In this document: positions 1 through 48,600 of the stretch, piece by piece
Numbering within the stretch: position 1 is the first letter of the stretch
Layout: each line of letters starts with the position of its first letter
DNA from: Daphnia carinata
Taxonomy: Eukaryota; Arthropoda; Branchiopoda; Diplostraca; Daphniidae
Assembly: GCF_022539665.2 (NCBI RefSeq)
Contig: NC_081339.1
Span: 7,375,367-7,439,366, forward strand
Reading direction: 5' to 3'
Length of the DNA stretch: 64,000 bases
Notes under the pieces: model-generated
What the model saw: the letters and a program-made list of their open reading frames with translations, nothing else
What the model was told of the DNA's origin: nothing
Databases searched by the model: none
Position numbers and translations under genes: made by a program

Positions 1-1207
1 ACGAAGTAAAAGTCTTCAACAGTGATCGGCATTTGGCATTACCGTTACATCAGCCCCTAACAAACGAAATGTACAACTGATGAAAATTGAAGTTATTTTG
101 GTATTTCATTTTCATAAAAGTTCAAATTAGTTTTAAAATAAGTATATTATTATACAAGTTGAAAAATCAACGACATTTAAGATGCTTGATAATTTGTATC
201 TAAATTTAGGAGCAGCAGCATAGTAATGTGACTTGAAAGTAACTGATTGCAAGTACAGTATATTGCAGAAAAATGTGGCGGTCTTCCCTATCCTTTGTTT
301 GCCAAACCTGACACATTTCACTGCAACCTCCTGTACATGATGGATTCCTGCAATGATGAAACAGTATGGTACTAATATATATGCTTTAAATAATTAGTGG
401 TACTTACACTTAAATTCCTCATTTGTTGCAATTTGGTAGACACTCGGAGTAACCTATCAGCTACTAACAGAAGGACTGCAAACCGTCGTACTATAAAGAA
501 ATACAACATTATTGGTAACACAGTTTAATTAAACTACTTAGTTTTTGCTACCATAGATTTCGAACTAATTTTGTTTTACACAGCTAAGATACACTCGCAT
601 TCACTGCATAAAAAATTAACTAACGTAACTAATGAACACTAATCAACTTACCTGACAGCCTAAGCGCCCGACGATGGTATAGGAGTGGTCGTACATTTGC
701 AGAGGAAATACCTCATACGAATGTGACTGCATAGCATCGTGTGGCGCCTTAAATACTCGCAGACATGGTGCCACATTATTGCTTTCCCGGAAGTAGAGGG
801 TAGGGTAGAGGAACCCAATTCTGAAGGTCGATAGGTTGAAGGCAAATTTTTTATTTCCAGGTGAGCCCGAGGTTATGGCCATTCCGCATCGATTGACCCA
901 ATGTGTTACCAAGGGCCAAAAACAGATGAAGAACCTCGGGCAATTCACAAAAAAAGGGGGGAAGGAAGAAAAAAAGAATCTAGAAGCTCAGTAGCTCGTT
1001 GATCAGCACGCGGTGCACTAGTGTAGATTTCTTGCTTGCAATCCTCATGTAGTGATTGTTAGAACTTTCGCACGTGCACTCAGCTTTTGCACTTTGTAGA
1101 TTCATCAATTAGGCACTAATAACGCACTGCATCAGCACCTGGTTTAGCCTCTGCACTGGTTTTGTTTAGTTAGGGAGTACGATAAGTGTAGATGAAAGAG
1201 ATAAACG

Positions 1208-1340
1208 TAGATTAAGTTAAAGATAAGTAAATCTAAAGTTAAGTTAAGGATAGGTAAATCTAAAGTTAAGTTTAAGGATAGGTAAATCTAAAGTTAAGAT
1301 TAAGGCTAGGTAAATCTAAAGTTAAGATTAAGGCTACTTG
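1208..1340 (+). repeat. Minisatellite, unit about 28-31 bp, left arm
   Basis: About five units of the type GGTAAATCTAAAGTTAAG, with alternating GATA/GGCTA variants, follow one another. The mirror copy is at about 14152-14285. Confidence 0.85.
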
Positions 1341-1709
1341 AAGTAAGGCGTAAAGCGTAGTCCACCTCACTTCGTTATTTATGCACAACACTATCCCAGC
1401 GATTTTCTTCCACTGTTTTATGTAATTATTTACCGTAGTCGTTCGCAAACCATTTTTCTACGAACATTTGTACGTTTCGAATTCATACAGTTTACACATG
1501 AACAAGCCAAGCCCAATCCAAACAACCTCCTGACTCTTTATCTATTAATAAACAATTTCTTTTTTCAGGAACTTTTTATCCAATGTAACTGTAATTTGTG
1601 TACTTGATGCCTGTTAGAATTAAGATGAAACACGGTGCTTTTCAAATATTAAAAAAAAAAAAATTTTATTTTTTATTTTTTTATTTTTTGTCCCTTCCTT
1701 ACATACAGG

Positions 1710-3336
1710 AGTGCAATCTCTGGGGCCGAAGAGGACATTGGGCAACGAGGATAGCCCCGCAGCCACTGGAATATCGTCCAGGATTCTAAGGTATATAATA
1801 AAAAATTTAGTATCTAACTATGTATTCGTTTTAAATTTTATATATCTAGGAGGGCCACATCACCACCGAAGGGGGACCGTTGGGCAACGAAGGTCACCGC
1901 AAGAATCCTAGCCCAAAATCGCAAGGTATTTAACAATTTTAAGTGTTTTTACCATGTTCTGTCTATTTATCTGTGTCTAGGAGGGCTTGCAACACTACCG
2001 AGGAGGATTACTGGGCGTCGGGGATCGCCGCCGAAGTCGCCAAGGGTTGCCAGGTATTGCTTTAACAATTTTAAATGTCTAATCGTTTTTTTTAAAAATG
2101 TATTTAGGGTGGTCCACATCACCGAAGAAGGCCACCGGACAACGAGGTTCGCCGTCGGAGCCACCTTGATCGTCGCCCAAAATTGTCAAGTATTTCATTA
2201 AAAATTTTAAGTTTTGAACTATGGTTTTATTTTGTTTTTATGAATTTAGGAGGGCTACATCACCATCGAAGAGGATGCGTGACATCGAGGATCGCCGCTG
2301 GAGCAACGAGATTGCCAGCACGGTATTGAGGTATTTTTTAAAAAACGTTTAAGTGCTTAATCATGTTTTTTTTTATGTATGTAAGAGGGACCTACCACCG
2401 CCGAAGAGGATGGTGGACGCCGAAGAGGATGGTGGAGCACCGACATCGTCGTCATAGATGTTTCAGGTATATGTTTTACACGTTTAATTGTCTAACCATG
2501 TTTTTTTTTTGTATTTAGGAGGGTTCCATCATCGCTAAGGAGGACCACTGGACAACGAGGTTCGTCGTCGGAGGTATCATAATTGTCGCCCAAAATTATC
2601 AAGTATTTAATTGAAAGTTTTAAGTTTTACACTATGATTTTATTTTGTTTTTATGGTTTTAGAAGGGCTCCACTATCATTGATAAGGATGTAGGACGCCG
2701 TCGGAGTCACCATGATCGTCGCCCAAAATTGTCAAGTATTTATTTGTAAATTTTAAGTGTTACACTATGATCTTACTTTGTTTTTATGTATTTAGGAGGG
2801 CCCTACCACCACCGACGAGGATGCTGGGCATCGAGGATCGCCGATGGAGCAACGAAATTGTCGCCATGGATGTAGCAGGTATATGTTTACACGTTTAATT
2901 GTCTAATCATTTTTTTTATGTATTTAGAATGGCCTACATCACCACTGAAGAGGGCCACAGGGCAATGAGGTTCGCCTTCGGAGCTACGGTAATTGTTGCC
3001 CAAATTTGTCAAGTATTTAGTTGAAAGTTTTACGCCATAATTTTGTTGTTTTTATGTATTTAGAAGGGTTCTGCCACCTGAAGAGGACGCCGAAGAGGAC
3101 GCTGGAGGCTGAAGAGGACGCTGGAGGCTGAAGAGGACCGAGATCGTCGCCACGGATATTCAGGTATATATTTTTTTTAATTTAGTGTCTAACCATAGTT
3201 TTTTTTTTTTTTTTTACGTACATAGGAGGGCCCCGCCACCACCGAAGAGGACCACTGGACGTCGTGGATCGTCGTTGGAGGAATGAGGGTCGTCGCCCAG
3301 CTCCGAGATTCACGCCCATTAGGACGATGGAAATAA
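1710..3336 (+). repeat. Array of 12 exon-like modules, left arm
   Basis: Twelve units of about 127-162 bp begin at about 1710, 1851, 1979, 2106, 2248, 2384, 2516, 2661, 2793, 2925, 3061 and 3223. Each starts after an acceptor-like TTTAG or ATAG with GAGGGCC..CACCACCGAAGAGGA. It continues GC-rich for 60-100 bases (ACGAGG..TCGCCG..GGAG), then ends at a donor-like CAAGGTATTT or CAGGTATAT followed by an AT-rich spacer of about 60 bases with a T-run. Some neighbouring modules join in one open frame, but others meet stops, so I cannot derive a protein. The region resembles tandem duplication of one exon plus its intron, or a satellite that mimics this. Confidence 0.8.
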
Positions 3337-5330
3337 AGATGGTACGGTGGAGTATTGCCAAATTGGCTTTCACTTACTTTCTTTCGTATTGTGATTTGTG
3401 TGATTGATAGATGTGTTTGCTTCGTTCCTTTTTCCCTCCCATTATTTTCCCTCAAGCATTATTGCTTATGATTTTACCTTCCACTGAGCACGCAATTTCA
3501 CTACACCTGCACCGCACGGATCGTTCACGGCTTGTATTCGACTTAATGCACCGGGTTGGGATTAGTGGTTTAGGTAATGTAGCCCTACTTACATAGGTTC
3601 AACGCCAAGTATTTGTTTGCTGCAGATTTGCAAAACACTAACTGCTTTAAAAAGAAAAGTAAAACAAAATAAATTACTGTTGTATTTTGAATATTGAATA
3701 GTGACTTGAAAAATAGGAATACTAAAACATTTAATTGCTTGTGATCGATTTGCCTACAACGATTGACAACCCGATAAAAACATGATGGGGTAATAACCCG
3801 TTTAACCTGCCCCATAAACGGAAATGAACAACCCGCTCAACAAAACGCGACACGATCGAAGCGGGGCTGTGAATCTGACCCTAGTCTTTCTTCCTTAACC
3901 TTCCCCTTTCCACTTACCAATTCGATGTTTTGCAACGCTGTCTAACATGTCTGCACAAGGGCATATGAATTTCAGTGTTGTATGCGCAGAAAGTATGTAA
4001 GCAAAACAGAGATACCGGTAGATATATTCGATAATTTCATATTGGCAAAATTTTATTTGGCATTTAATCCAGCTTTGGTAATTTTAGAATTTTGAAGACG
4101 TGTAGCGAACGCAAAGATATGGCAGCATCGAAGACCACTCACGAGCGTCGCATCGTTAAAATTAAAGGGGATTATAGTTCAACATGGCGACGACAGGACA
4201 CCCACCTGTAAAGCCTTGACCACAGAAGAGAATTTTAACGAAGTCATAGAAATTCTCCTTGATTTTGAAAAACAGACTAGACCCGTGAGTTGAATTTCTG
4301 TATCTTTTTGTATCTTACTTGATCCTATGCTTTGCTTACAGGTAGATACCATTTCAGCAAGGTGCATCTTGGAACCGATTGTGCAGATCAGTTTCGGAAT
4401 TAAGCAGTGGCACCTTATCAATGAAAATATCCTAAGCTAGAACTAATGATGGAGCAAGCTAAAGGCTTCTGGTCTAATAGTACCAACTAGTATGGCGAAT
4501 GGGAGAGACCTCCACCCCGTCATGAATTGTGGATATGAATGTACAAATCTGTGATTACTGGATTTGATACTCAGAACTGTTCCTGTTAGAAAGGTGCATA
4601 TCTTTGTTTCTGTTATTCTTTTTTACATAAAATATTTTATTTTCAATCTATGTTGGAGTGAATCGAGGCTGATGCATAATGCAAGAGAAATAGGGTAAAG
4701 TTGCTGAAGCCGCAGACATTCTCCAAGAACGTCTGTTCAAGACCAGTGATTCTATGGAAAAGCTAGAAAATGTAAGATTTACTAATTTTGGTTTTAATGT
4801 CAAATAATTCTGTCATGCAATTCTCATGTTCTAATACCAGTGAACAGGTTGAGCTTATCCTGAAACCAATGAGATTGTTTCTTCTTCATCTGCACTCAGA
4901 TCATTTTGAAGAAGATAAGTGTCAGATTTGTTTTTAGAGAAACATGTGCTAAGTCTTAAAGTGAAATTTTTTCATGTAGGAATATTTTAACGTTGTTCCA
5001 TTTGTCTTATTAAGCGTGGGAAGGTGGAGAGGAAATGTTGGTAAATTATTCATCATTGTGTAGATTCCTGATAGATGTTGACAAGAACAGGTATTACATC
5101 TCTACATTTGTTAACATAATCAAGCCATGTATAACATAACAGTGATCCAAGAGAAAGAGCTTCTGCAATTGTTGGTGGTTGTCGAGCTGATGTTTCGCCG
5201 ACACGCTGTGTCAATAGTACAAACTAGTATGGCGAAGGGAGAGACCTTCCTCCCGACAATGATATCATTAACATAGGTCAGTGCAGTAAATCACATTTAT
5301 AGTAGAGAAAAACGTACAAGTAACTTCTTT

Positions 5331-5520
5331 TTGCATAAGTTAATGAGGATGGCGAGAAACGGTGGAAAGTTACCGAATACGTCTTGTATAGAATGTCCGA
5401 ATCATGGCCAAACACTACAGCCTTGTGACGATCAATGGATGGTTGCACACTTTGACTATTTTGTTGAGGGAAGAGAAGAATTTCAATCCAATTTAATGTG
5501 CAGAAGGACGGACGTACTCT
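5331..5520 (+). other. Open frame in the palindrome arms, not recognised
   Basis: A frame of about 65 codons before a poly-A run contains three Cys (CIECPNHG and CRR) and several charged residues. Its mirror is at 9935-10127 (minus). It has no recognised domain and no convincing splice partners. The poly-A run is about 28 bases here but shorter in the right arm. It may be a fragment of an old coding element. Confidence 0.25.
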
Positions 5521-6765
5521 GTAAAAAAAAAAAAAAAAAAAAAAAAAAACACTTACCTATCCGGTTTTTAAAATTTTTTCTTAAATTTTAAATAGGTTGG
5601 GTGGTAGAGAAGAATCGCGATGCTATTCGATAACACGAATGAGGCGGATGAACACTTTGTAAACCTGGATTAACTATGCAAATTAGATTGCATCACATCT
5701 GGAATTTAGCTGCGTGTAATGGGTTCAACATATCAGCAGAAGTACGTTTATTGCCAAAAATTTTTCGGAAATGTAATGTGTTGATGTGATTAATGCATTT
5801 TTACAGATAGACCAGAATAAGTCATTCAATGAACTGGGCATTGGAATGTGGGAGAATGAGATATATTGCTAGGAATTTGAAGAAATGGTAAGTGAAGGAG
5901 AAATGATCTAACACCAAAAGCCTATAAGATTGAGCGTTGGCAGAACATTGCAAGTGCTTTGTTGAAGGATAGGCAATGAGGTATGTTTAAAAAAATGGCG
6001 ATTAATAATTCAGTACGGAATTGCATAATGTTGCTAGTCTGGGGTAAAAGTTTACTGGTTTAGTTTTTTTTATTTTGATTTACGTGATAGGTTAAATCAT
6101 ATTAAAATTATTCGTTTAATATTCCTTTCCGATTGGGTGTACATAATACACGTGCCCACGGAAAAGATATATTACCCCGCGGAATAAAAATAATGCGTAA
6201 AACGCAAAGCAATAATAAGCCTTTCCGATTGGGTTTATTTAATGCCCACGAAAAGGATAAAATAACTTGAAGGAATAATAAAAATGCGCAAGAAAAACAA
6301 ATGCAGGGTGTTGGGTTTATAAATTGCACATATATTTAGCTTGCCGTTCATATGCCTTGCAAGAACGGAAATTTTATTTTAAGAGGGTTATTTTATTCGT
6401 GCTGTAATGATATTAACATTGGTAAGTCTGGAGATATGCAAGACATTTTACTTGTGAACTGTAAAATGTATAAGGCGATATGTAGAAAGAGATGGGAGTT
6501 TTGGTAATTATAAATGGGTTTATATCAACCGTAAAATTCGGCAAAGGTATGCATTATAACAAGTACAGTAATTATACAAAGTACTTAGTAGAAATGGGGA
6601 AACGTTTTTATAATAATAATTGTGATATATTTATCTGCAAGTTGTAAATAAATGACTACAATAACACCAATTAGTAATTTGTAAAAAAATTATTGCACTT
6701 ACCAATATTAACATAATCTAGAGCTATATCGTTTACATATTTACATCATGTTATACACTTTCTGG

Positions 6766-6832
6766 TTTTCGGACCCGAACCTTCGACCTATAGCGTCCCA
6801 TGCCGATCCTCTGCATATGGGCCACCATCGAC
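6766..6832 (-). repeat. tRNA-like cassette D, left arm
   Basis: Read on the minus strand, it has an A-box-like TGGCCCATATGCAGAGG and, about 40 bases on, a B-box-like GGTTCGGGTCC. The T-arm does not pair well and no acceptor stem is visible, so this is not an intact tRNA gene. The mirror copy is at about 8626-8696 on the plus strand. Confidence 0.45.
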
Positions 6833-6931
6833 ATATTCAACTTTGACGTATCGATTAGCATATATTGTTAACCTAAGTAAATACGAGCACACAAATGTAG
6901 CTGCACAAATGTTCAATCAAGATATACATCA

Positions 6932-6992
6932 ATGGCTCAGTTGTAGAGTGCTGACTTGGTATTTCAAAGGTCCTTGGTTCAACTCCGAGAGT
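6932..6992 (+). repeat. tRNA-like cassette A, left arm
   Basis: TGGCTCAGTTGTAGAGTG gives a D-arm (GCTC pairing with GAGT) and a good A box. CTTGG-TTCAACT-CCGAG gives a complete 5-bp T-arm with the standard seven-base loop and B box. The anticodon arm is imperfect and the acceptor stem does not pair. It looks like a tRNA-derived repeat or tRNA pseudogene. The mirror copy is at about 8464-8526 (minus). Confidence 0.55.
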
Positions 6993-7085
6993 AGACATGG
7001 TGATAATAATTGTACCATGTGAATCTGTTGTATTCCACCATAATTAAAAATCTATTATAAGCTTGCATACTTATACGCTATACCT

Positions 7086-7156
7086 ACACCACTTGGAGTT
7101 GAACTCCCAACCTTATAGTTACAATGCTGCTCCTCTACCACTGAGCTACCATTGAC
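7086..7156 (-). repeat. tRNA-like cassette B, left arm
   Basis: On the minus strand the D-arm region TAGCTCAGTGGTAGAGG is strikingly canonical, and a B-box-like GAGTTCAACTCC follows after about 35 bases. T-arm pairing is partial. The intact-looking mirror copy reads on the plus strand at about 8300-8372. It is more likely a tRNA-derived repeat than a working tRNA. Confidence 0.5.
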
Positions 7157-7258
7157 ACATTTTAATACCATGACTCTGCCAATACACTAAATTAACTATC
7201 TCCAAGGTAGCATACGTAAAAAGGCTCTAAAAATCGAAATGTTGATAACAAGCAAGTT

Positions 7259-7323
7259 ATGGCACGATGGTAAAGTGCTTGCGTCTGAATACATAGTGCT
7301 GTGGTTCAAATCCCAGATCATCC
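7259..7323 (+). repeat. tRNA-like cassette C, left arm
   Basis: GGCACGATGGTAAAGTGC resembles a D-arm, and GTGGTTCAAATCCCAG resembles a T-arm with a one-base bulge. A separate B-box-like GTGGTTCAAGTCCCAC stands alone at about 7387-7402. The mirror copy is at about 8131-8199 (minus). Confidence 0.45.
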
Positions 7324-7492
7324 AATGTAAATAATTAAATGATTCTAACAGTTGGCCGACTCAATGTGATTTACATGACGGTTGTGGTTCAAGTCCCACA
7401 GCAATTTACCTTGCCGTAAATCATTAATGGCAAATGACGTTCGGCGAAGATAAAAGGTAAGAGAAAGCCAAGGTTTAAAAAATTCTGGCAAA

Positions 7493-7624
7493 GGTCAAGT
7501 CCGAATTACAGCTAAGGTTACGATAACCTTAAAGGATGACCTTAAGGTCGTACATTTGACAGTGAAACTTTTTGAAGGTCAAATATATGACCTTGAAAAT
7601 TTTGAAGGTCGAATATTCGACCTT
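7493..7624. repeat. Cluster of short palindromes with AAGGTC half-sites at the hairpin tip
   Basis: Several inverted motifs follow each other: a 7-base inverted repeat around CGA at 7514-7530, the perfect 12-base palindrome GACCTTAAGGTC at 7538-7549, a near-perfect AAGGTCA/TGACCTT pair at about 7575-7594, and a perfect 20-base palindrome at 7605-7624. The right arm repeats most of these at about 7858-7940 but lacks the 20-base one. AAGGTCA resembles the half-site bound by nuclear receptors of the FTZ-F1/ERR type. A regulatory role is only inference. Confidence 0.7.
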
Positions 7625-7637
7625 GAAATATATATAT

Positions 7638-7848
7638 ATCCCGGATCCCATATCCCATATCCCGGATCCCATATCCCATATCCCATATCCCATATCCCAT
7701 ATCCCGGATCCCATATCCCATATCCCATATCCCGGATTCCATATCCCATATCCCAGATCCCATATCCCGGATTCCATATCCCATATCCCAGATCCCATAT
7801 CCCGGATTTCATATCCCATATCCCGGATCCCATATCCCGGATCCCATA
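7638..7848. repeat. CCCATAT/CCCGGAT satellite in the palindrome spacer
   Basis: About 30 seven-base units alternate between CCCATAT and CCCGGAT, with occasional CCCAGAT and CCCGGATT variants. The array is nearly the whole single-copy spacer between the palindrome arms. It reads open in several frames on both strands (Gly-Tyr-Gly-Ile-type repeats on the minus strand), but this follows from the seven-base period and I do not regard it as a gene. Confidence 0.95.
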
Positions 7849-8130
7849 TTTCAAAATTTTCAAGGTCATATATTTGACCTTCAAAAAGTTTCACTGTCAA
7901 ATGTACGACCTTAAGGTCATCCTTTAAGGTTATCGTAACCTTGGCTGTCATTCGGACTTGACCTTTGCCAGAATTTTTTAAACCTTGGCTTTCTCTTACC
8001 CTTTATCTTCGCCGAACGTCATTTGCCATTAATGATTTACGGCAAGGTAAATTGCTGTGGGACTTGAACCACAACCGTCATGTAAATCACATTGAGTCGG
8101 CCAACTGTTAGAATCATTTAATTATTTACA

Positions 8131-8199
8131 TTGGATGATCTGGGATTTGAACCACAGCACTATGTATTCAGACGCAAGCACTTTACCATCGTGCCATAA
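8131..8199 (-). repeat. tRNA-like cassette C, right arm
   Basis: Mirror of 7259-7323 on the minus strand, with the same D-arm-like and T-arm-like segments and the same one-base bulge in the T stem. Confidence 0.45.
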
Positions 8200-8299
8200 C
8201 TTGCTTGTAATCAACATTTCGATTTTTAGAGCCTTTTTACGTATGCTACCTTGGAGATAGTTAATTTAGTGTATTGGCAGAGTCATGGTATTAAAATGT

Positions 8300-8372
8300 G
8301 TCAATGGTAGCTCAGTGGTAGAGGAGCAGCATTGTAACTATAAGGTTGGGAGTTCAACTCCAAGTGGTGTAG
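8300..8372 (+). repeat. tRNA-like cassette B, right arm
   Basis: Mirror of the cassette at 7086-7156. It carries the canonical D-arm TAGCTCAGTGGTAGAGG and a TTCAA-containing T-loop. The acceptor stem is not recognisable. Confidence 0.5.
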
Positions 8373-8463
8373 GTATAGCGTATAAGTATGCAAGCTTATA
8401 ATAGATTTTTAATTATGGTGGAATACAACAGATTCACATGGTACAATTATTATCACCATGTCT

Positions 8464-8526
8464 ACTCTCGGAGTTGAACCAAGGACCTTTGAAATACCAA
8501 GTCAGCACTCTACAACTGAGCCATTA
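8464..8526 (-). repeat. tRNA-like cassette A, right arm
   Basis: Mirror of 6932-6992. The T-arm is intact, but the bases upstream of the D-arm differ from the left copy (CCATTAATGG against TACATCAATGG on the coding strand), so the two copies have diverged slightly. Confidence 0.5.
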
Positions 8527-8625
8527 ATGGATATCTTGATTGAACATTTGTGCAGCTACATTTGTGTGCTCGTATTTACTTAGGTTAACAATATATGCTA
8601 ATCGATACGTCAAAGTTGAATATGT

Positions 8626-8696
8626 CGATGGTGGCCCATATGCAGAGGATCGGCATGGGACGCTATAGGTCGAAGGTTCGGGTCCGAAAACCAGAA
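8626..8696 (+). repeat. tRNA-like cassette D, right arm
   Basis: Mirror of 6766-6832. A-box-like and B-box-like elements are spaced as in a tRNA gene, with poor stem pairing. Confidence 0.45.
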
Positions 8697-11600
8697 AGTG
8701 TATAACATGATGTAAATATGTAAACGATATAGCTCTAGATTATGTTAATATTGGTAAGTGCAATAATTTTTTGACAAATTACTAATTGGTGTTATTGTAG
8801 TCATTTATTTACAACTTGCAGATAAATATATCACAATTATTACTATAAAAACGTTTCCCCATTTCTACTAAGTACTTTGTATAATTACTGTACTTGTTAT
8901 AATGCATACCTTTGCCGAATTTTACGGTTGATATAAACCCATTTATAATTACCAAAACTCCCATCTCTTTCTACATATCGCCTTATACATTTTACAGTTC
9001 ACAAGTAAAATGTCTTGCATATCTCCAGACTTACCAATGTTAATATCATTACAGCACGAATAAAATAACCCTCTTAAAATAAAATTTCCGTTCTTGCAAG
9101 GCATATGAACGGCAAGCTAAATATATGTGCAATTTATAAACCCAACACCCTGCATTTGTTTTTCTTGCGCATTTTTATTATTCCTTCAAGTTATTTTATC
9201 CTTTTCGTGGGCTAGTGTATTAAATAAACCCAATCGGAAAGGCTTATTATTGCTTTGCGTTTTACGCATTATTTTTATTCCGCGGGGTAATATATCTTTT
9301 CCGTGGGCACGTGTATTATGTACACCCAATCGGAAAGGAATATTAAACGAATAATTTTAATATGATTTAACCTATCACGTAAATCAAAATAAAAAAAACT
9401 AAACCAGTAAACTTTTACCCCAGACTAGCAACATTATGCAATTCCGTACTGAATTATTAATCGCCATTTTTTTAAACATACCTCATTGCCTATCCTTCAA
9501 CAAAGCACTTGCAATGTTCTGCCAACGCTCAATCTTATAGGCTTTTGGTGTTAGATCATTTCTCCTTCACTTACCATTTCTTCAAATTCCTAGCAATATA
9601 TCTCATTCTCCCACATTCCAATGCCCAGTTCATTGAATGACTTATTCTGGTCTATCTGTAAAAATGCATTAATCACATCAACACATTACATTTCCGAAAA
9701 ATTTTTGGCAATAAACGTACTTCTGCTGATATGTTGAACCCATTACACGCAGCTAAATTCCAGATGTGATGCAATCTAATTTGCATAGTTAATCCAGGTT
9801 TACAAAGTGTTCATCCGCCTCATTCGTGTTATCGAATAGCATCGCGATTCTTCTCTACCACCCAACCTATTTAAAATTTAAGAAAAAATTTTAAAAACCG
9901 GATAGGTAAGTGTTTTTTTTTTTTTTTTTTTTTTTACAGAGTACGTCCGTCCTTCTGCACATTAAATTGGATTGAAATTCTTCTCTTCCCTCAACAAAAT
10001 AGTCAAAGTGTGCAACCATCCATTGATCGTCACAAGGCTGTAGTGTTTGGCCATGATTCGGACATTCTATACAAGACGTATTCGGTAACTTTCCACCGTT
10101 TCTCGCCATCCTCATTAACTTATGCAAAAAGAAGTTACTTGTACGTTTTTCTCTACTATAAATGTGATTTACTGCACTGACCTATGTTAATGATATCATT
10201 GTCGGGAGGAAGGTCTCTCCCTTCGCCATACTAGTTTGTACTATTGACACAGCGTGTCGGCGAAACATCAGCTCGACAACCACCAACAATTGCAGAAGCT
10301 CTTTCTCTTGGATCACTGTTATGTTATACATGGCTTGATTATGTTAACAAATGTAGAGATGTAATACCTGTTCTTGTCAACATCTATCAGGAATCTACAC
10401 AATGATGAATAATTTACCAACATTTCCTCTCCACCTTCCCACGCTTAATAAGACAAATGGAACAACGTTAAAGTATTCCTACATGAAAAAATTTCACTTT
10501 AAGACTTAGCACATGTTTCTCTAAAAACAAATCTGACACTTATCTTCTTCAAAATGATCTGAGTGCAGATGAAGAAGAAACAATCTCATTGGTTTCAGGA
10601 TAAGCTCAACCTGTTCACTGGTATTAGAACATGAGAATTGCATGACAGAATTATTTGACATTAAAACCAAAATTAGTAAATCTTACATTTTCTAGCTTTT
10701 CCATAGAATCACTGGTCTTGAACAGACGTTCTTGGAGAATGTCTGCGGCTTCAGCAACTTTACCCTATTTCTCTTGCATTATGCATCAGCCTCGATTCAC
10801 TCCAACATAGATTGAAAATAAAATATTTTATGTAAAAAAGAATAACAGAAACAAAGATGTGCACCTTTCTAACAGGAACAGTTCTGAGTATCAAATCCAG
10901 TAATCACAGATTTGTACATTCATATCCACAATTCATGACGGGGTGGAGGTCTCTCCCATTCGCCATACTAGTTGGTACTATTAGACCAGAAGCCTTTAGC
11001 TTGCTCCATCATTAGTTCTAGCTTAGGATATTTTCATTGATAAGGTGCCACTGCTTAATTCCGAAACTGATCTGCACAATCGTTTCCAAGATGCACCTTG
11101 CTGAAATGGTATCTACCTGTAAGCAAAGCATAGGATCAAGTAAGATACAAAAAGATACAGAAATTCAACTCACGGGTCTAGTCTGTTTTTCAAAATCAAG
11201 GAGAATTTCTATGACTTCGTTAAAATTCTCTTCTGTGGTCAAGGCTTTACAGGTGGGTGTCCTGTCGTCGCCATGTTGAACTATAATCCCCTTTAATTTT
11301 AACGATGCAACGCTCGTGAGTGGTCTTCGATGCTGCCATATCTTTGCGTTCGCTACACGTCTTCAAAATTCTAAAATTACCAAAGCTGGATTAAATGCCA
11401 AATAAAATTTTGCCAATATGAAATTATCGAATATATCTACCGGTATCTCTGTTTTGCTTACATACTTTCTGCGCATACAACACTGAAATTCATATGCCCT
11501 TGTGCAGACATGTTAGACAGCGTTGCAAAACATCGAATTGGTAAGTGGAAAGGGGAAGGTTAAGGAAGAAAGACTAGGGTCAGATTCACAGCCCCGCTTC

Positions 11601-12116
11601 GATCGTGTCGCGTTTTGTTGAGCGGGTTGTTCATTTCCGTTTATGGGGCAGGTTAAACGGGTTATTACCCCATCATGTTTTTATCGGGTTGTCAATCGTT
11701 GTAGGCAAATCGATCACAAGCAATTAAATGTTTTAGTATTCCTATTTTTCAAGTCACTATTCAATATTCAAAATACAACAGTAATTTATTTTGTTTTACT
11801 TTTCTTTTTAAAGCAGTTAGTGTTTTGCAAATCTGCAGCAAACAAATACTTGGCGTTGAACCTATGTAAGTAGGGCTACATTACCTAAACCACTAATCCC
11901 AACCCGGTGCATTAAGTCGAATACAAGCCGTGAACGATCCGTGCGGTGCAGGTGTAGTGAAATTGCGTGCTCAGTGGAAGGTAAAATCATAAGCAATAAT
12001 GCTTGAGGGAAAATAATGGGAGGGAAAAAGGAACGAAGCAAACACATCTATCAATCACACAAATCACAATACGAAAGAAAGTAAGTGAAAGCCAATTTGG
12101 CAATACTCCACCGTAC

Positions 12117-13790
12117 CATCTTTATTTCCATCGTCCTAATGGGCGTGAATCTCGGAGCTGGGCGACGACCCTCATTCCTCCAACGACGATCCACGACGTC
12201 CAGTGGTCCTCTTCGGTGGTGGCGGGGCCCTCCTATGTACGTAAAAAAAAAAAAAAAAAAAAAACTATGGTTAGACACTAAATTAAAAAAAATATATACC
12301 TGAATATCCGTGGCGACGATCTCGGTCCTCTTCAGCCTCCAGCGTCCTCTTCAGCCTCCAGCGTCCTCTTCAGCCTCCAGCGTCCTCTTCAGCCTCCAGC
12401 GTCCTCTTCGGTGGTGGCAGAACCCTTCTAAATACATAAAAACAACAAAATTATGGCGTAAAACTTTCAACTAAATACTTGACAAATTTGGGCAACAATT
12501 ACCGTAGCTCCGAAGGCGAACCTCATTGCCCTGTGGCCCTCTTCAGTGGTGATGTAGGCCATTCTAAATACATAAAAAAAATGATTAGACAATTAAACGT
12601 GTAAACATATACCTGCTACATCCATGGCGACAATTTCGTTGCTCCATCGGCGATCCTCGATGCCCAGCATCCTCGTCGGTGGTGGTAGGGCCCTCCTAAA
12701 TACATAAAAACAAAGTAAGATCATAGTGTAACACTTAAAATTTACAAATAAATACTTGACAATTTTGGGCGACGATCATGGTGACTCCGACGGCGTCCTA
12801 CATCCTTATCAATGATAGTGGAGCCCTTCTAAAACCATAAAAACAAAATAAAATCATAGTGTAAAACTTAAAACTTTCAATTAAATACTTGATAATTTTG
12901 GGCGACAATTATGATACCTCCGACGACGAACCTCGTTGTCCAGTGGTCCTCCTTAGCGATGATGGAACCCTCCTAAATACAAAAAAAAAACATGGTTAGA
13001 CAGTTAAACGTGTAAAACATACCTGAAACATCTATGACGACGATGTCGGTGCTCCACCATCCTCTTCGGCGTCCACCATCCTCTTCGGCGGTGGTAGGTC
13101 CCTCTTACATACATAAAAAAAAACATGATTAAGCACTTAAACGTTTTTTTAAAAATACCTCAATACCGTGCTGGCAATCTCGTTGCTCCAGCGGCGATCC
13201 TCGATGTCACGCATCCTCTTCGATGGTGATGTAGCCCTCCTAAATTCATAAAAACAAAATAAAACCATAGTTCAAAACTTAAAATTTTTAATGAAATACT
13301 TGACAATTTTGGGCGACGATCAAGGTGGCTCCGACGGCGAACCTCGTTGTCCGGTGGCCTTCTTCGGTGATGTGGACCACCCTAAATACATTTAAAAAAA
13401 AAAACGATTAGACATTTAAAATTGTTAAAGCAATACCTGGCAACCCTTGGCGACTTCGGCGGCGATCCCCGACGCCCAGTAATCCTCCTCGGTAGTGTTG
13501 CAAGCCCTCCTAGACACAGATAAATAGACAGAACATGGTAAAAACACTTAAAATTGTTAAATACCTTGCGATTTTGGGCTAGGATTCTTGCGGTGACCTT
13601 CGTTGCCCAACGGTCCCCCTTCGGTGGTGATGTGGCCCTCCTAGATATATAAAATTTAAAACGAATACATAGTTAGATACTAAATTTTTTATTATATACC
13701 TTAGAATCCTGGACGATATTCCAGTGGCTGCGGGGCTATCCTCGTTGCCCAATGTCCTCTTCGGCCCCAGAGATTGCACTCCTGTATGTA
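12117..13790 (-). repeat. Array of 12 exon-like modules, right arm
   Basis: Mirror of the left-arm array, read on the minus strand. It has one more copy of the GAAGAGGACGCTGGAGGCT-type short repeat (about 12320-12410) than the left arm. All splice-like signals are in mirror orientation. Confidence 0.8.
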
Positions 13791-14151
13791 AGGAAGGGAC
13801 AAAAAATAAAAAAATAAAAAATAAATTTTTTTTTTTTTTTTTAATATTTGAAAAGCACCGTGTTTCATCTTAATTCTAACAGGCATCAAGTACACAAATT
13901 ACAGTTACATTGGATAAAAAGTTCCTGAAAAAGAAATTGTTTATTAATAGATAAAGAGTCAGGAGGTTGTTTGGATTGGGTTTGGCTTGTTCATGTGTAA
14001 ACTGTATGAATTCGAAACGTACAAATGTTCGTAGAAAAATGGTTTGCGAACGACTACGGTAAATAATTACATAAAACAGTGGAAGAAAATCGCTGGGATA
14101 GTGTTGTGCATAAATAACGAAGTGAGGTGGACTACGCTTTACGCCTTACTT

Positions 14152-14285
14152 CAAGTAGCCTTAATCTTAACTTTAGATTTACCTAGCCTTAATCTTAACT
14201 TTAGATTTACCTATCCTTAAACTTAACTTTAGATTTACCTATCCTTAACTTAACTTTAGATTTACTTATCTTTAACTTAATCTAC
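14152..14285 (-). repeat. Minisatellite, right arm
   Basis: Mirror of the array at 1208-1340, reading CTTAACTTTAGATTTACC on the plus strand, about five units. Confidence 0.85.
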
Positions 14286-14834
14286 GTTTATCTCTTTCAT
14301 CTACACTTATCGTACTCCCTAACTAAACAAAACCAGTGCAGAGGCTAAACCAGGTGCTGATGCAGTGCGTTATTAGTGCCTAATTGATGAATCTACAAAG
14401 TGCAAAAGCTGAGTGCACGTGCGAAAGTTCTAACAATCACTACATGAGGATTGCAAGCAAGAAATCTACACTAGTGCACCGCGTGCTGATCAACGAGCTA
14501 CTGAGCTTCTAGATTCTTTTTTTCTTCCTCCCCCCCTTTTTTTGTGAATTGCCCGAGGTTCTTCATCTGTTTTTGGCCCTTGGTAACACATTGGGTCAAT
14601 CGATGCGGAATGGCCATAACCTCGGGCTCACCTGGAAATAAAAAATTTGCCTTCAACCTATCGACCTTCAGAATTGGGTTCCTCTACCCTACCCTCTACT
14701 TCCGGGAAAGCAATAATGTGGCACCATGTCTGCGAGTATTTAAGGCGCCACACGATGCTATGCAGTCACATTCGTATGAGGTATTTCCTCTGCAAATGTA
14801 CGACCACTCCTATACCATCGTCGGGCGCTTAGGC

Positions 14835-16715
14835 TGTCAGGTAAGTTGATTAGTGTTCATTAGTTACGTTAGTTAATTTTTTATGCAGTGAATGCGAGTG
14901 TATCTTAGCTGTGTAAAACAAAATTAGTTCGAAATCTATGGTAGCAAAAACTAAGTAGTTTAATTAAACTGTGTTACCAATAATGTTGTATTTCTTTATA
15001 GTACGACGGTTTGCAGTCCTTCTGTTAGTAGCTGATAGGTTACTCCGAGTGTCTACCAAATTGCAACAAATGAGGAATTTAAGTGTAAGTACCACTAATT
15101 ATTTAAAGCATATATATTAGTACCATACTGTTTCATTTCATCCATCATGTACAGGAGGTTGCAGTGAAATGTGTCAGGTTTGGCAAACAAAGGATAGGGA
15201 AGACCGCCACATTTTTCTGCAATATACTGTACTTGCAATCAGTTACTTTCAAGTCACATTACTATGCTGCTGCTCCTAAATTTAGATACAAATTATCAAG
15301 CATCTTAAATGTCGTTGATTTTTCAACTTGTATAATAATATACTTATTTTAAAACTAATTTGAACTTTTATGAAAATGAAATACCAAAATAACTTCAATT
15401 TTCATCAGTTGTACATTTCGTTTGTTAGGGGCTGATGTAACGGTAATGCCAAATGCCGATCACTGTTGAAGACTTTTACTTCGTGAAATAATAATAATTA
15501 AATATTCGTGAAACGCATTTGTACTGTTCCCGTACCTGCAAATGAACGTTAAATTTTCTTTCAAATCAGAAAAAAGAAATAAATTTGAAAATCTTACCAT
15601 ATTAACTACTAATACGATTATAGTAAAGTCTGAAAAGTGACTTACCATGTAAAAGCAAAAAGTTAACTGGAAGCACCGGGTTAATGGGTAGGTGATTACA
15701 TTACCTAATGGGAAATGGTATTAACCAGATTGATTGAAAGTCATATTATATTTCTAATAATATAATCTACTCCAGGACCAGCTGTACACTAATTAATTAA
15801 TCAGGTAAGTTAATTTCTTGGTAATTGGATTCGTTTGTTATTTTGTGATGCAGTCAATGCGAGAATATCTTAACTGTAAAAATTAGTTCGAGAAATATAT
15901 TAACATAAACTAATTTTAACTTAGATCAGAATGTTGCCATTAGTGTTCTATTCCTTTGTAGTACGGTGGGTTGTCAGAGCTTTTGTGAGTAGCTGATGAC
16001 AGGTTAACCACAGGTGCCTATCAAGCTGCTACACATGAGGAACTCAAGTTTAAGTACCACTATTTGTTTAAAACATATAATAGTACCATAAATGTATGTT
16101 CGCTGTGGTTACTAGGAGTCATCACTACCGGTCGTCATCACGAAATAATTTGCTTTTAAGTCATATTACGAGCCTGCTACTCCTGAATGAAATACAAATT
16201 TTTAAGCATTTTAAATGGCATTGATATTAACCCTTGTATAATTACTTAAAATGACTAAAATTAACTTTAACCGAAAAGCGGTACCCATACTATTTTTAGG
16301 ATTCAGCGTTACATCCGGAGATCATAAAATTTAATGGTCATATAAATTAGCCAACTATAACCCTAAATATACTACCCTTGCTTTTAAATATAATTTTTTT
16401 AGCAATAGAAATATTTACTACATTACCGTGAAATGCTGATCGAAGCACTATTGTACTTTTCATATTTGCAACCGAAAATCTATCTTTCCATGTATCATTT
16501 TATTTGTTTGTTATTTCAAGTTAATCCATTTTAACGCACTGAAAAAAAAAATTGAAATTGATTAACTTAGTAAACCAATGACTCCTACCTATTGTTTAAT
16601 CGGAAATGGTATTAGCCAGATAAATTGTAAATTATAATTTACTTCTAATAACAATCTGTTCTCGTCCCAGTTTTACTAAAATTCCTGCCAATTGATTAAG
16701 ATCGGTAAACGATAC
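14835..16715 (+). repeat. Diverged direct duplication at the outer end of the right arm
   Basis: The segment 14835-15800 recurs in the same order at about 15800-16715 with many substitutions and small gaps. Shared landmarks are CAGGTAAGTT (14838 and 15804), AGTCAATGCGAGA against AGTGAATGCGAGT, TTTGTAGTACGGTGGG against TTTATAGTACGACGG, GTAAGTACCACTA-type blocks and GGGAAATGGTATTA against CGGAAATGGTATTA. The inner copy straddles the end of the palindrome at 15484, so the palindrome border falls inside the first repeat unit. Confidence 0.8.
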
Positions 16716-17083
16716 AGAAACGTACATCGCATTAATAAAATTACCATTGGCTGCTCAGCTGCCAGTCAATAGTCACGGTGTTGGAAGCGACGCTATCTTT
16801 AAAAAAATATATTGATAACATTTGATGTAGAAAAGTAAGATAAAGTACCTTGATGGTAATGTTTTGGATCCAAGTGTGCTAGTGCTTTCTCTCCGTTCAA
16901 TCACCATGAAAGTTTCAACATAAAAAGAATAATAAGCTTGCCAAAAGCTTCCTAGACTTCAATTGCAGTTCAACTAAGAAAAGGTATGTGTTAAACATAC
17001 GTTGCATTACTTGTATTGGGCATGGGTTGAAAATGGAAGGTAAAAGAATCGAAAGAAAACTTGTGCTACATTCATGGTTAATT

Positions 17084-45677: not shown

Positions 45678-48600
45678 TCACCGTCTGTAGATGATTTCGT
45701 TATTGTGGTGGTGATGGGGATGATGGTTCCTGTTAGCCGATCCGGAAGTGAGCGGTCTCCTCGCGTTGGCGTTATTCCTTTTCGCAGCGCCACAGCAGAG
45801 ATAGGAGAGACAGAAGATCCTGAGCTTGTGCCGGAAGAGCGGGCTCATGGCGACGTAGATGAACAACTTGAAAAACGAGTTGCAAATGCCGAGCCAGAAG
45901 ACGGTAAAGTGTAGGAAAGGGATGGAGTCGATGCGGTGCTGGGCCAGGAACTCGTAGAGCGTCAGGCAGATGAACGGGAGCCAGGAGAGCCAGAAAGTCA
46001 TGACGAGGATGAAGGACATGAGATGCGTCGGATTGGACAAGTTCTCACTCAGCGCCGTGGCGTACTCCTTGTCCTGCTGGAGCAAGGAGCTACGCATCTT
46101 CCGCATGGAGCTGAAGATGTAAAAATAGGTGTAGGCGACGGTGGCCAGGGTCGGGCCCAGGACGAGGATGACGAGCGTCACCGAATAAGCGGCCATGCCC
46201 GTCCAGTCGAGGTGGCAGACGAAGGCCTCCGGGTCAAAGTACGGTTTGGCGTAGCCGGTGGATCCCTGTAGGAGAGGCGGGCAGCAGGCCAGCATCGACG
46301 TCAGCCACGTGAAAATGACCCAGCACTGACACCGCGACGGCGTCTGCACTGTTTCGTAGCGCAACGGCTTACGGATGGCCAAATAACGGTCCACCGATAT
46401 CCACATGAACGAATAGACGGACACGGCCCACAACGTCGCCTCAACGTAGCCGGCTATGGAGCACAACACGTCACCGAACGGCCAACTATCTGTCAACGCT
46501 GGATAAATGGAGAGAGGCACCACCAGAATTCCGGCCAAGAGATCGGCGGCAGCCAAACTGATTAGGTAATAGTTCATCACTTCGCCACCTGTCCAAAAGT
46601 AATATGAATAAATTATCAAACGAAATTTTCATTCCTCATCTTCAGTTGCTTTTTATCGACCCGCATTTTTCTTTCTTTTTCTAGAGGATAATTAGAATGG
46701 ACATTAACAAGCCACGGCAGTCACACAATTGGGCTGTTCTCAAACAAGGGCTAATACGTAACAGTATCACGCAAGATGTGTACAAGGGCGGCGTTGGATT
46801 GTTGCGACGTGGGGCTAATCAATTTACTGGTGGCAGCGGACAGCAACCATCATCTAATGAGAGGACCGTATAATTTTCGTCGCAGAGGGCTGCCAACATC
46901 AGACGTCGGCAAAAGAACAAGCTGCTTCGCTCTTTCCTTCATAAATAATCGCGTTGTCTGATGTTGGACATAGAAGAGAGAGAGAGAGATACTGTACTAG
47001 TTTTTTTGTTTTTTTTCGTCGAGTGCTCCAACTCGTCATGGAAATCGAGTTGGAGACGGTCTCCAAAGACATTCATCTTGTTGTGAATGCTGCCCGATGG
47101 GACGACACAATCGGACAAACTGTTGGGCATAGCTAAAAGAAAAAGGGAGATCTTTAACGCTTTGCACTGTCGCAGTCTATATAGTTAAATGTATAACAGT
47201 GTTTGCTAATTGAACTTCAGATGAACTTCTAGAGCTGATGATATACTCGGTAATTTGCTTGTCTTGCGTGACTGATGAGCTGTACGGACATTATTGTTTT
47301 GAGATGTATTGAGACATAACGGGTCGCCATTTTTATTTGTTGAAGTCCATCCGTCTAAAGACTGGCAGGATTATATTGTTTAAAATTCAGAGTTATTTAC
47401 GTTTGGGTTTGGCTGCCCTTTTTTGAGCGGGTAGATACTATGTTTAAACGATACGTAAATAAATAGGGAAGTTCGGTTGTTATAAGGGCAGCGCAAAAAG
47501 AGTGATGACGGCAAAACGTGTGGCCGACAGCGGAAGAAATGAGGTGCGATTCTTCTCTGTCCGGATGCGGCGAGACGGACGGACATTTTCAACCGTCACT
47601 TCGGATCTTTTTTTTTTTACGAGTCTCGCTGGAACAAATTCTGAATAGATGACCAACACATTTGGTATGTCTTCCTCTATAGACACGAGACTATCATTTA
47701 GTATAAAGATGAATCGATCTTCGGACAATGGGAAGTTGGAAGAATTGGCTACTAGACAGAGGCTGTTACATTGGATTTCGTTCTGTGAGACGCGTGATTC
47801 TTTTGTCCAAAAGCCCCGGAATGTCTGAGAGAGGCCAACCTTAAAGGCAAAAAAAGAGCTCAAATCTAATATTGATTTATATAGACAGAAAAAAAAGATA
47901 AAAGATATATATATATACTGTATATTAATGAGAGAAAAGCTGCGGTTTCCTCGATGAAGATATTGCTCTCAAAAAAGAAAAAAATAACAACGTATGTAGC
48001 ACGAGACGCTCTCCCTTTTTTTCTATTAATACGAGTCTCTCATGTAACACACACACGTCGATAAATATATGGATGCCGTCGATGTATTCCGCCCTTTTTC
48101 GGATGTTGCCCGAATTTTGCCGTTTTCGCAGCAAATCGACGACAGATTCCCATCACTTCTCTTGATTTTTCTTATACATACATTTCCCCTATATTTTTTT
48201 TTTAGGGAAGTACGAAAAAAAATAACAGGGGGAGGGGGGCAAAGAGAGAGGAACGAATAGATGAAAGGAACCGACGATCCGTTGTGCACGGATCGATCGA
48301 TATGTTTCCCGGCCCGTGTTTTATAAGCAGGCTGTACATGTACCGTATAAAGGATGACGTGGCTGTCGACACGCCCGCAAAAATGTTCACTAACCTAACC
48401 TTTCTTTTTTCTTTTTTCACGTTCAGACATTTTTGCTGCTGTAGCGCCCACCGACTGGGCAAAAAACGAAGTTTATGACGAGCATCTTGCGGAACGATGG
48501 CAGATAAAAAGATTTGCGTCGCTTTCAAAATTCCGGCTTTTTTTTTTTTTTTTTTTTTGTTCTTTTGTTTCTCATTCCAACTTGCAATTCGTACTCATTT

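What the first reader, a model, noticed from the sequence alone, without database searches (positions are those of the whole stretch)
1..15484. Near-perfect palindrome of at least 15.5 kb with no recognisable mobile-element genes
Two arms of about 7.6 kb are inverted copies with only scattered differences. This is far larger than ordinary foldback or MITE elements, and no transposase-like frame is present. Small differences (substitutions, homopolymer lengths, one extra short repeat) suggest real sequence, possibly homogenised by gene conversion. An assembly error, such as a long read that crossed a missed hairpin adapter, would also give a mirror image, and must be excluded first.
Basis: partly seen in the sequence, partly recalled or inferred. 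Interest (0 to 1): 0.85.

Follow-up and report, generated by a model that had tools for sequence, protein, structure and literature searches.

The report
Family of giant palindromes in Daphnia
The mirror-image stretch is real and is one of at least sixteen related giant palindromes in a water flea genome, whose two halves can be copied onto each other and in which we recognised no transposon genes.

Summary
The palindrome is real and larger than reported: the arms run from 310 bases left of the window to 15794 (about 16.1 kb, spacer 7607-7849) and differ by 19 substitutions and 13 gap events over 7.6 kb. It is neither a lone oddity nor, in all likelihood, a missed-adapter artefact. Related palindromes lie on at least six chromosomes of this genome (Daphnia carinata by database match): a conserved arm block occurs 53 times, 16 times as a mirrored pair 9-14 kb apart, never in the opposite order. 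Local arm identity ranges from 99.8% to about 68%. Trees show that some palindromes were duplicated whole with already diverged arms, while in three (this one, C7, C2) the two arms of one locus are each other's closest. Just outside the right arm lies a remnant of an older, diverged right arm, so overwriting by the left arm is the simplest account. Common ends and a transposase were not found and target-site duplications are inconclusive, so I do not file it as a foldback transposon. Best reading: a clustered family of palindromic segmental duplications renewed by arm-to-arm copying. Function is unproven.

The parts
1..7606 (+). left arm (continues 310 bases left of the window, to genome C9:7375057)
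7607..7849 (.). spacer: (ATATCCC)n minisatellite from 7636, preceded by 30-bp repeats (7570-7628) that are themselves nearly palindromic; the same kind of centre is present in palindromes C7, C3e, C1, C3s
7850..15794 (-). right arm, inverted copy of the left arm; ends abruptly at 15794
15795..17016 (-). remnant of an older, diverged right arm (15801-16090 is 74% like 365-655; 16144-16683 is 59% like 15235-15794; 16597-17016 is 87% like the left flank)
718..894 (-). conserved promoter-like block, left arm, pointing outward
14598..14774 (+). conserved promoter-like block, right arm, pointing outward; TATTTAA at 14737, CAG|GTAAGT after 14840
1709..3300 (+). about 12 tandem units, 127-162 bp apart, that look like exon plus mini-intron, left arm
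12158..13781 (-). mirror copy of the tandem exon-like units, right arm
   Evidence: mirror coordinates
6927..6997 (+). tRNA-derived unit, best of the left arm (marginal ones 6754-6830 -, 7084-7154 -, 7254-7323 +, E 0.038, 0.002, 0.15)
8459..8529 (-). tRNA-derived unit, best of the right arm (marginal ones 8133-8202 -, 8302-8372 +, 8626-8702 +)

Best explanation
This is one member of a dispersed but clustered family of roughly 11-18 kb palindromic segmental duplications in the genome of Daphnia carinata. An ancestral inverted duplication, with a minisatellite and tRNA-derived units at its centre and lying next to an HP1-like gene, was duplicated whole to many sites. The two arms of a copy then drift apart until a break or stalled fork lets one arm be copied over the other (gene conversion, or template-switch/break-induced copying that can end at a non-homologous point), which makes the palindrome near-perfect again. 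In this copy the left arm was copied over the right arm and the copying ended at 15794, leaving the outer part of the old right arm in place. Shown: the family, the shared centre of five copies, the two kinds of arm relationship, the old-arm remnant, the swapped centre of two copies. Inferred: the direction and molecular route of copying, the founder beside the HP1-like gene, and that the copies spread by DNA duplication and not by a transposase.
For: Window 3000-4500 gives at least 151 matching stretches in the genome, many of the listed ones as inward-facing pairs. A 32-base pattern of the conserved block: 53 matches, reversed control 0; 16 neighbouring outward-facing pairs 9.4-13.9 kb apart, 0 in the opposite order; strand shuffles give a mean of 4.5 and at most 11 (2000 shuffles). 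Local arm identities: C7 99.8 and 97.6%, C2 97.9-99.5%, C3e 76-86%, C1 79-82%, C3s 69-82%, C9a 68-89%, C9b 69-84%, C9:6.753 Mb 77-89%. Trees: the two W (window) arms pair at 100/100 in 3 of 3 trees, the two C7 arms in 3 of 3, the two C2 arms in the one tree that holds both; C1L pairs with C3eL and C1R with C3eR in the mid and inner segments, C9aL with C9bR in mid and outer, C9aR with C9bL in mid. Centre swap: mid and inner segments of C1/C3e are coupled the other way round than in C3s, and the minisatellite is on the opposite strand there. Old right arm remnant. The C7 right arm stops abruptly at sequence like the 180-bp satellite, while its left side goes on homologously to other copies (TRF calls no array at that right end). 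HP1-like pseudogenes keep intron sequence, so they came by DNA duplication. Clustering: 35 of the 53 block matches lie in C2 2.57-3.79 Mb or C9 5.94-7.51 Mb.
Against: C9a and C9b share a unit with sharp ends on both sides, and a TSD-like TATGAA flanks C9a one or two bases off the ends, which a transposon could also give. No read data, no second Daphnia assembly and no population data were available. In the outer segment C3eL pairs with C7 and C1L with C3sL instead of with each other, and C9aR and C9bL are not joined, so the history is more mixed than the simple story. 21 of the 53 block matches are unpaired in the pattern list. Heterochromatin is inferred from position and satellites, not measured.
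Confidence: 0.65

Rival explanations
1. A giant non-autonomous foldback (FB/Galileo/Tetris-like) transposon: long terminal inverted repeats with internal tandem repeats, moved by a transposase encoded elsewhere.
For: Multi-copy, palindromic, tandem repeats inside the arms, satellite nearby as in Tetris (passages), sharp ends of the C9a/C9b unit and a near-miss TSD at C9a.
Against: Ends differ between copies; the two ends of the C9a/C9b unit are not inverted repeats of each other and the left-end query finds only those 2 places in the genome; no TSD seen at C9b; no transposase domain in the 9 window ORFs and 1 C7 ORF scanned; copies cluster in a few domains.
Confidence: 0.2
2. A functional RNA locus: the arms are transcribed from the conserved block into spliced long non-coding RNA, possibly long double-stranded RNA that feeds small-RNA silencing, and arm identity is kept because the hairpin is used.
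For: The block is found in 13 of the 14 other arms (not in C1L), 88-97% like the C9aR query. Among 9 arms its mean pairwise identity is 0.85-0.94, and on the outer side, beyond a TATTTAA box, it drops to 0.42-0.75. Tandem exon-like units with GT donors kept in 123 of 138 cells against 0.68 for other GTs. HP1-like pseudogenes face inward at C7.
Against: On the inner side of the block identity stays at 0.73-0.94 in windows with few gaps, so the contrast is one-sided. CAG|GTAAGT is intact in only 5 of the 9 arms. Exon-like parts are no more conserved than intron-like parts (0.828 against 0.826), and AG acceptors are kept in 134 of 158 cells against 0.77 in the control. Several palindromes have arms too diverged for a good hairpin. 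No RNA data.
Confidence: 0.1
3. Assembly artefact: a read that crossed a missed hairpin adapter.
For: Mirror symmetry; 5 of the 13 gap events are homopolymer lengths.
Against: 19 substitutions between arms; family palindromes with 68-89% arms; old right arm remnant outside the arm; two neighbouring palindromes, judged from paired hits, with inner-arm sequence 95-96% like this one.
Confidence: 0.02

Closest known systems
Ampliconic palindromes of sex chromosomes (human Y; willow W, PMC7023750, passages read)
   Same: Large inverted repeats with a spacer, arms over 99% alike, arm-to-arm gene conversion, several palindromes sharing arm sequence.
   Different: Not one chromosome: the arm block lies on 8 of the 10 chromosome-scale contigs; no intact protein gene was found in the window's arms; many copies have badly diverged arms.
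Long intergenic inverted repeats of Caenorhabditis (PMC1803023, abstract and discussion read)
   Same: Near-perfect arms kept alike while the sequence itself changes (2207-bp arms, 126-bp spacer, 99.7% at one locus).
   Different: There, loci flanked by paralogous genes; here a multi-copy family with arms several times longer that duplicates as whole palindromes.
Foldback transposons: Tetris (PMC4079207, passages), Galileo (PMC4168063, passages)
   Same: Inverted repeats with internal tandem repeats; for Tetris a link to satellite arrays.
   Different: Those have target-site duplications (8-10 bp in Tetris, mostly 7 bp in Galileo); here none was established, the ends vary, and the arms are about 8 kb.
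Palindromes of parthenogenetic animals (PMC7953838, passages)
   Same: Palindromes in genomes of animals that reproduce clonally, suspected of gene conversion.
   Different: Those were found through gene annotation (D. pulex could not be screened there); this family is almost gene-free and would probably be missed that way.

Membership tests
Foldback (FB-like) DNA transposon | long inverted repeats with internal tandem repeats | tested here: met
Foldback (FB-like) DNA transposon | same termini in all copies | tested here: not met
   (C9a and C9b share ends with each other only)
Foldback (FB-like) DNA transposon | target-site duplication | tested here: inconclusive
   TATGAA near, not at, the C9a ends; none seen at C9b (read by eye)
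Foldback (FB-like) DNA transposon | transposase in an autonomous relative | tested here: inconclusive
   none among the 10 ORFs scanned; longest ORF 131 aa in the 7 arm stretches listed, not all scanned; an autonomous relative elsewhere was not searched for
Ampliconic palindrome kept by gene conversion | arms of one locus closer to each other than to other loci | tested here: met
   W, C7, C2; not met in C1, C3e, C9a, C9b
Ampliconic palindrome kept by gene conversion | intact genes in the arms | tested here: not met
   none found in the window's arms (9 ORFs); an intact HP1-like gene lies beside, not in, the matched arms of the C9:6.753-Mb palindrome
Ampliconic palindrome kept by gene conversion | lies in a region without crossing over | not testable with these tools
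   no recombination map
Missed-adapter artefact | arms identical apart from read errors | tested here: not met
   19 substitutions, 10 of them transitions

The most novel reading that the evidence does not exclude
A new class of self-renewing chromosomal element: a palindrome that spreads as a unit and restores its own symmetry, with paired promoter-like blocks, exon-like arrays and a tRNA-derived centre, that arose beside an HP1-type heterochromatin gene and may help to build or mark the domains in which it clusters (for example through RNA from its arms).
Probability: 0.12. Interest if true: 0.88.

Novelty: new variant of a known kind. Interest (0 to 1): 0.62.

Why it matters
Large palindromes are best known from sex chromosomes (PMC7023750, passages; general recall). 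A family with many copies, at stages from near-perfect to badly decayed, in an animal that mixes clonal and sexual reproduction (recalled), lets one watch palindromes form, decay and renew, and count how often one arm overwrites the other. It also suggests that annotation-based screens for palindromes in clonal animals can miss such families.

Tried and rejected
Coding genes in the arms: 10 ORFs against Pfam, no match above a curated cut-off; the window stretch 4060-4480, well kept in five arms, shows no clear excess of silent changes in any frame (for example 12 silent to 27 changing where 0.22 silent is expected by chance, 15 to 26 in another frame that holds stops). The 114-aa ORF at 646-987 found no candidate in the protein database. 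Exon-like units as a protein: lengths are mostly 1 mod 3 and frames hit stops. tRNA genes: the units are clearly tRNA-derived (ARAGORN reads Thr in C1, C3e, C3s and Ser or Arg in C2, C9a, C9b, none in the window), but in the flanks printed the outward units have no T-run directly downstream and the window's own score just below the Rfam cut-off (27.3 against 29), so I do not call them genes; the pair-count signal reflects three lineages as much as selection. A PF00385 search missed the decayed HP1-like copies though it found the intact one; a protein query found 95 stretches, many with stops. Telomere repeats: at most one TTAGG and one CCTAA in any of 20 contig-end pieces (17 starts, 3 ends), so subtelomeric position is not shown. 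Centromere reading: C3 has block matches near both ends and C6 near its start, with HP1-like pieces again at 10.12 of 10.90 Mb, so one centromere per chromosome does not fit simply. Literature: nine searches; among the titles and abstract starts that they listed (some lists were cut) I saw no palindrome family in Daphnia; the library holds open-licence papers only.

Caution on counts: genome searches score only the best candidates, so copy numbers are lower bounds. In one search one donor (exon 2250) was probably placed 7 bases off and gave 0 of 13; I kept it in the 123 of 138. The binomial test on inner substitutions was chosen after seeing the data. My notebook says that the block is in all 14 other arms; one search shows 13 of 14.

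Full report
CHECK. The mirror image is there. Window 1-7606 and 7850-15484 align inverted at 98.98% over 7649 columns. The arms go on beyond the window: 310 bases of left flank match the stretch 15485-15794 at 99.4%, so the symmetric part is about 16.1 kb with a 243-bp spacer. Global alignment of the arms shows 19 substitutions and 13 gap events, 5 of them in homopolymers. Eight of the 19 substitutions fall in the innermost 1 kb (binomial p 0.002, test chosen afterwards).

WHERE. The window is C9:7375367-7439366 of a 108-Mb assembly in 106 contigs, of which C1-C10 have 7.9 to 14.4 Mb. An HP1-like protein spliced from this genome is 100% identical to 'chromobox protein homolog 1-like [Daphnia carinata]', whose longest contig, 9910348, has the length of C9. 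The host is therefore Daphnia carinata.

NOT ALONE. Window 3000-4500 has at least 151 matching stretches, and the listed places often come as a plus copy followed by a minus copy. Seven loci were fetched around such pairs: C7 (centre 4.6757 Mb), C2 (2.8350), C3e (13.2400), C1 (0.0236), C3s (0.0455), C9a (6.3078), C9b (6.5085); all seven are palindromes. Local arm identities run from 99.8% (C7) and 97.9-99.5% (C2) through 76-86% (C1, C3e) to 68-89% (C3s, C9a, C9b). An eighth, at C9:6.753 Mb, has 77-89%. Two more, judged from paired hits and not fetched, lie in tandem about 140-150 kb to the left of the window copy, with inner-arm sequence 95-96% like it.

GENOME-WIDE COUNT. A ~170-bp block at window 718-894 (minus) and 14598-14774 (plus) is one of the best kept parts across loci: it is found in 13 of the 14 other arms fetched, all but C1L. 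A 32-base pattern from it matches 53 places with up to 3 mismatches, the reversed control 0, on C1-C7, C9 and C45. Sixteen neighbouring pairs face outward at 9.4-13.9 kb, none faces inward; strand shuffles give 4.5 on average, 11 at most. Twenty-one of the 53 are unpaired in this list; at least one partner is merely too diverged (C2:3487066, whose partner near 3499178 appears), others may be lone arms. The 16 pairs lie on C2, C3, C6, C7 and C9; with C1, six chromosomes have shown palindromes.

ANATOMY OF AN ARM, outside to inside. (a) In C7, C3e, C1, C3s and C2 (8 copies), but not in the window copy and not convincingly in C9a or C9b, decayed HP1-like genes that still contain intron sequence, reading inward. 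(b) The conserved block, with an ETS-like ACTTCCGG and a TATTTAA box (motif names recalled), followed about 104 bases on by CAG|GTAAGT in 5 of 9 arms (W, C2R, C3eR, C3eL; C7L in the alignment; altered in C3sL, C9aR, C9aL, C9bL). Mean pairwise identity among these 9 arms is 0.85-0.94 in the block and 0.42-0.75 outward of the TATA-like box, but it stays high, 0.73-0.94 in windows with few gaps, on the inner side. (c) About 12 tandem units, each like a 73-100-base exon plus a short intron, with T-rich acceptors and GTAT donors. GT is kept in 123 of 138 donor cells, AG in 134 of 158 acceptor cells; other GT and AG dinucleotides are kept in 0.68 and 0.77. But exon-like and intron-like parts are equally conserved (0.828 and 0.826), so selection on exons is not shown. 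(d) Mid-arm sequence without a clear coding signal where tested. (e) Units derived from a tRNA, alternating in strand about every 165 bp in the window; only one per arm scores strongly there. (f) 30-bp nearly palindromic repeats and the (ATATCCC)n minisatellite at the centre, shared by the window copy, C7, C3e, C1 and C3s; C2 has another centre. A satellite of 177-180 bp forms arrays beside C7, C3e, C3s and C1, and a short piece like it lies near C2; it occurs widely in the genome.

HOW ARMS EVOLVE. Trees of three arm segments (14, 16 and 10 rows) show two regimes. In C1 and C3e, left arms pair with left and right with right in the mid and inner segments; C9aL pairs with C9bR (mid and outer) and C9aR with C9bL (mid). 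These palindromes were therefore copied whole when their arms had already diverged. In the window copy, C7 and C2, both arms of one locus pair with each other at 100/100 wherever both are in the tree. Exceptions: in the outer tree C3eL pairs with C7, C1L with C3sL, and C9aR and C9bL are not joined. In addition, the mid and inner segments of C1/C3e are coupled the other way round than in C3s, and the minisatellite is on the opposite strand there: the centre appears to have been inverted by an exchange between arms.

THE WINDOW COPY SHOWS THE EVENT. Right of the near-perfect arm, 15801-16090 matches the arm's own 365-655 at 74%, 16144-16683 matches 15235-15794 at 59%, and 16597-17016 matches the left flank and the first 89 bases of the left arm at 87%. 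In order and orientation these are a right arm of older date. The simplest account is that the left arm was copied over the right arm up to 15794 and the product joined the old right arm further in, which duplicates roughly 1 kb. C7 may show a like event: its right arm stops where sequence like the 180-bp satellite begins, while the left side goes on homologously to other copies. Whether this is gene conversion, break-induced replication or template switching is inference.

ORIGIN. An intact four-exon HP1-like gene, with relatives at 82-83% identity annotated in D. sinensis and D. magna, lies on one side only of the palindrome at C9:6.753 Mb, just outside its matched arms (no HP1 match within 8.8 kb on the other side). 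The 8 HP1-like copies seen in the other fetched loci look broken by frame changes or stops in their alignments. A plausible founder is thus a palindrome beside this gene, but direction is not proven. A paper on D. magna reports four HP1 genes (PMC12286036, passages read).

TRANSPOSON? C9a and C9b share a unit with sharp ends (C9a 6301748-6313515, C9b 6502679-6514745), but the two ends of the unit are not inverted repeats of each other; one end was found only in these two places of the genome, and a TSD-like word fits C9a only, off by one or two bases. Other copies end at different points. I therefore do not file the family as a foldback transposon, though it looks and partly behaves like one.

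DOMAINS. Of 53 block matches 35 lie in two domains, C2 2.57-3.79 Mb and C9 5.94-7.51 Mb, about 2.8 Mb of 108. Others lie near contig ends (C1, C3 both ends, C6 start) or inside C4, C5, C6 and C7. With the satellite, this looks like heterochromatic or pericentromeric surroundings, which is inference; the window copy itself lies near ordinary genes such as a GPR52-like receptor.

VERDICT. A real palindrome; a member of a clustered family of giant palindromes that I did not find described in the searches named above; arms renewed by copying; function open.

Noticed in passing
G000 C9:6760264-6761267 (L049): Intact four-exon HP1-like gene just outside one arm of a palindrome; equals a D. carinata database protein, 82-83% to D. 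sinensis and D. magna.
   Followed up: partly
G000 C9:7229076-7246005: Paired hits that suggest two palindromes of the same family in tandem, centres about 14 kb apart, inner-arm sequence 95-96% like the window copy.
   Followed up: no
G000 C7:4653638-4665759, C9:5971632-6003700, C6:111355-131879: The 180-bp satellite lies in larger repeating blocks of about 3.6, 4.4 and 2.8 kb.
   Followed up: no
G000 C2:2794203-2801073: Probably a lone arm: 99% like the C2 2.83-Mb left arm where compared (2799829-2801073); the match breaks off and 180-bp satellite begins within 400 bases.
   Followed up: no
G000 C2:816626-816946 and C8:5612252-5612572: HP1-like pseudogene pieces with identical scores on two chromosomes, which suggests a recent copy between them.
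   Followed up: no
L016:4910-5125 (C1:14909-15124): Twelve copies of an 18-bp repeat at 100% match beside a 177-bp satellite array.
   Followed up: no
window 1709-3300 and mirror: Tandem units that look like exons with mini-introns in an arm without a recognised gene.
   Followed up: partly
window 45684-46628 (-): GPR52-like receptor gene, 97% to a D. magna protein.
   Followed up: no
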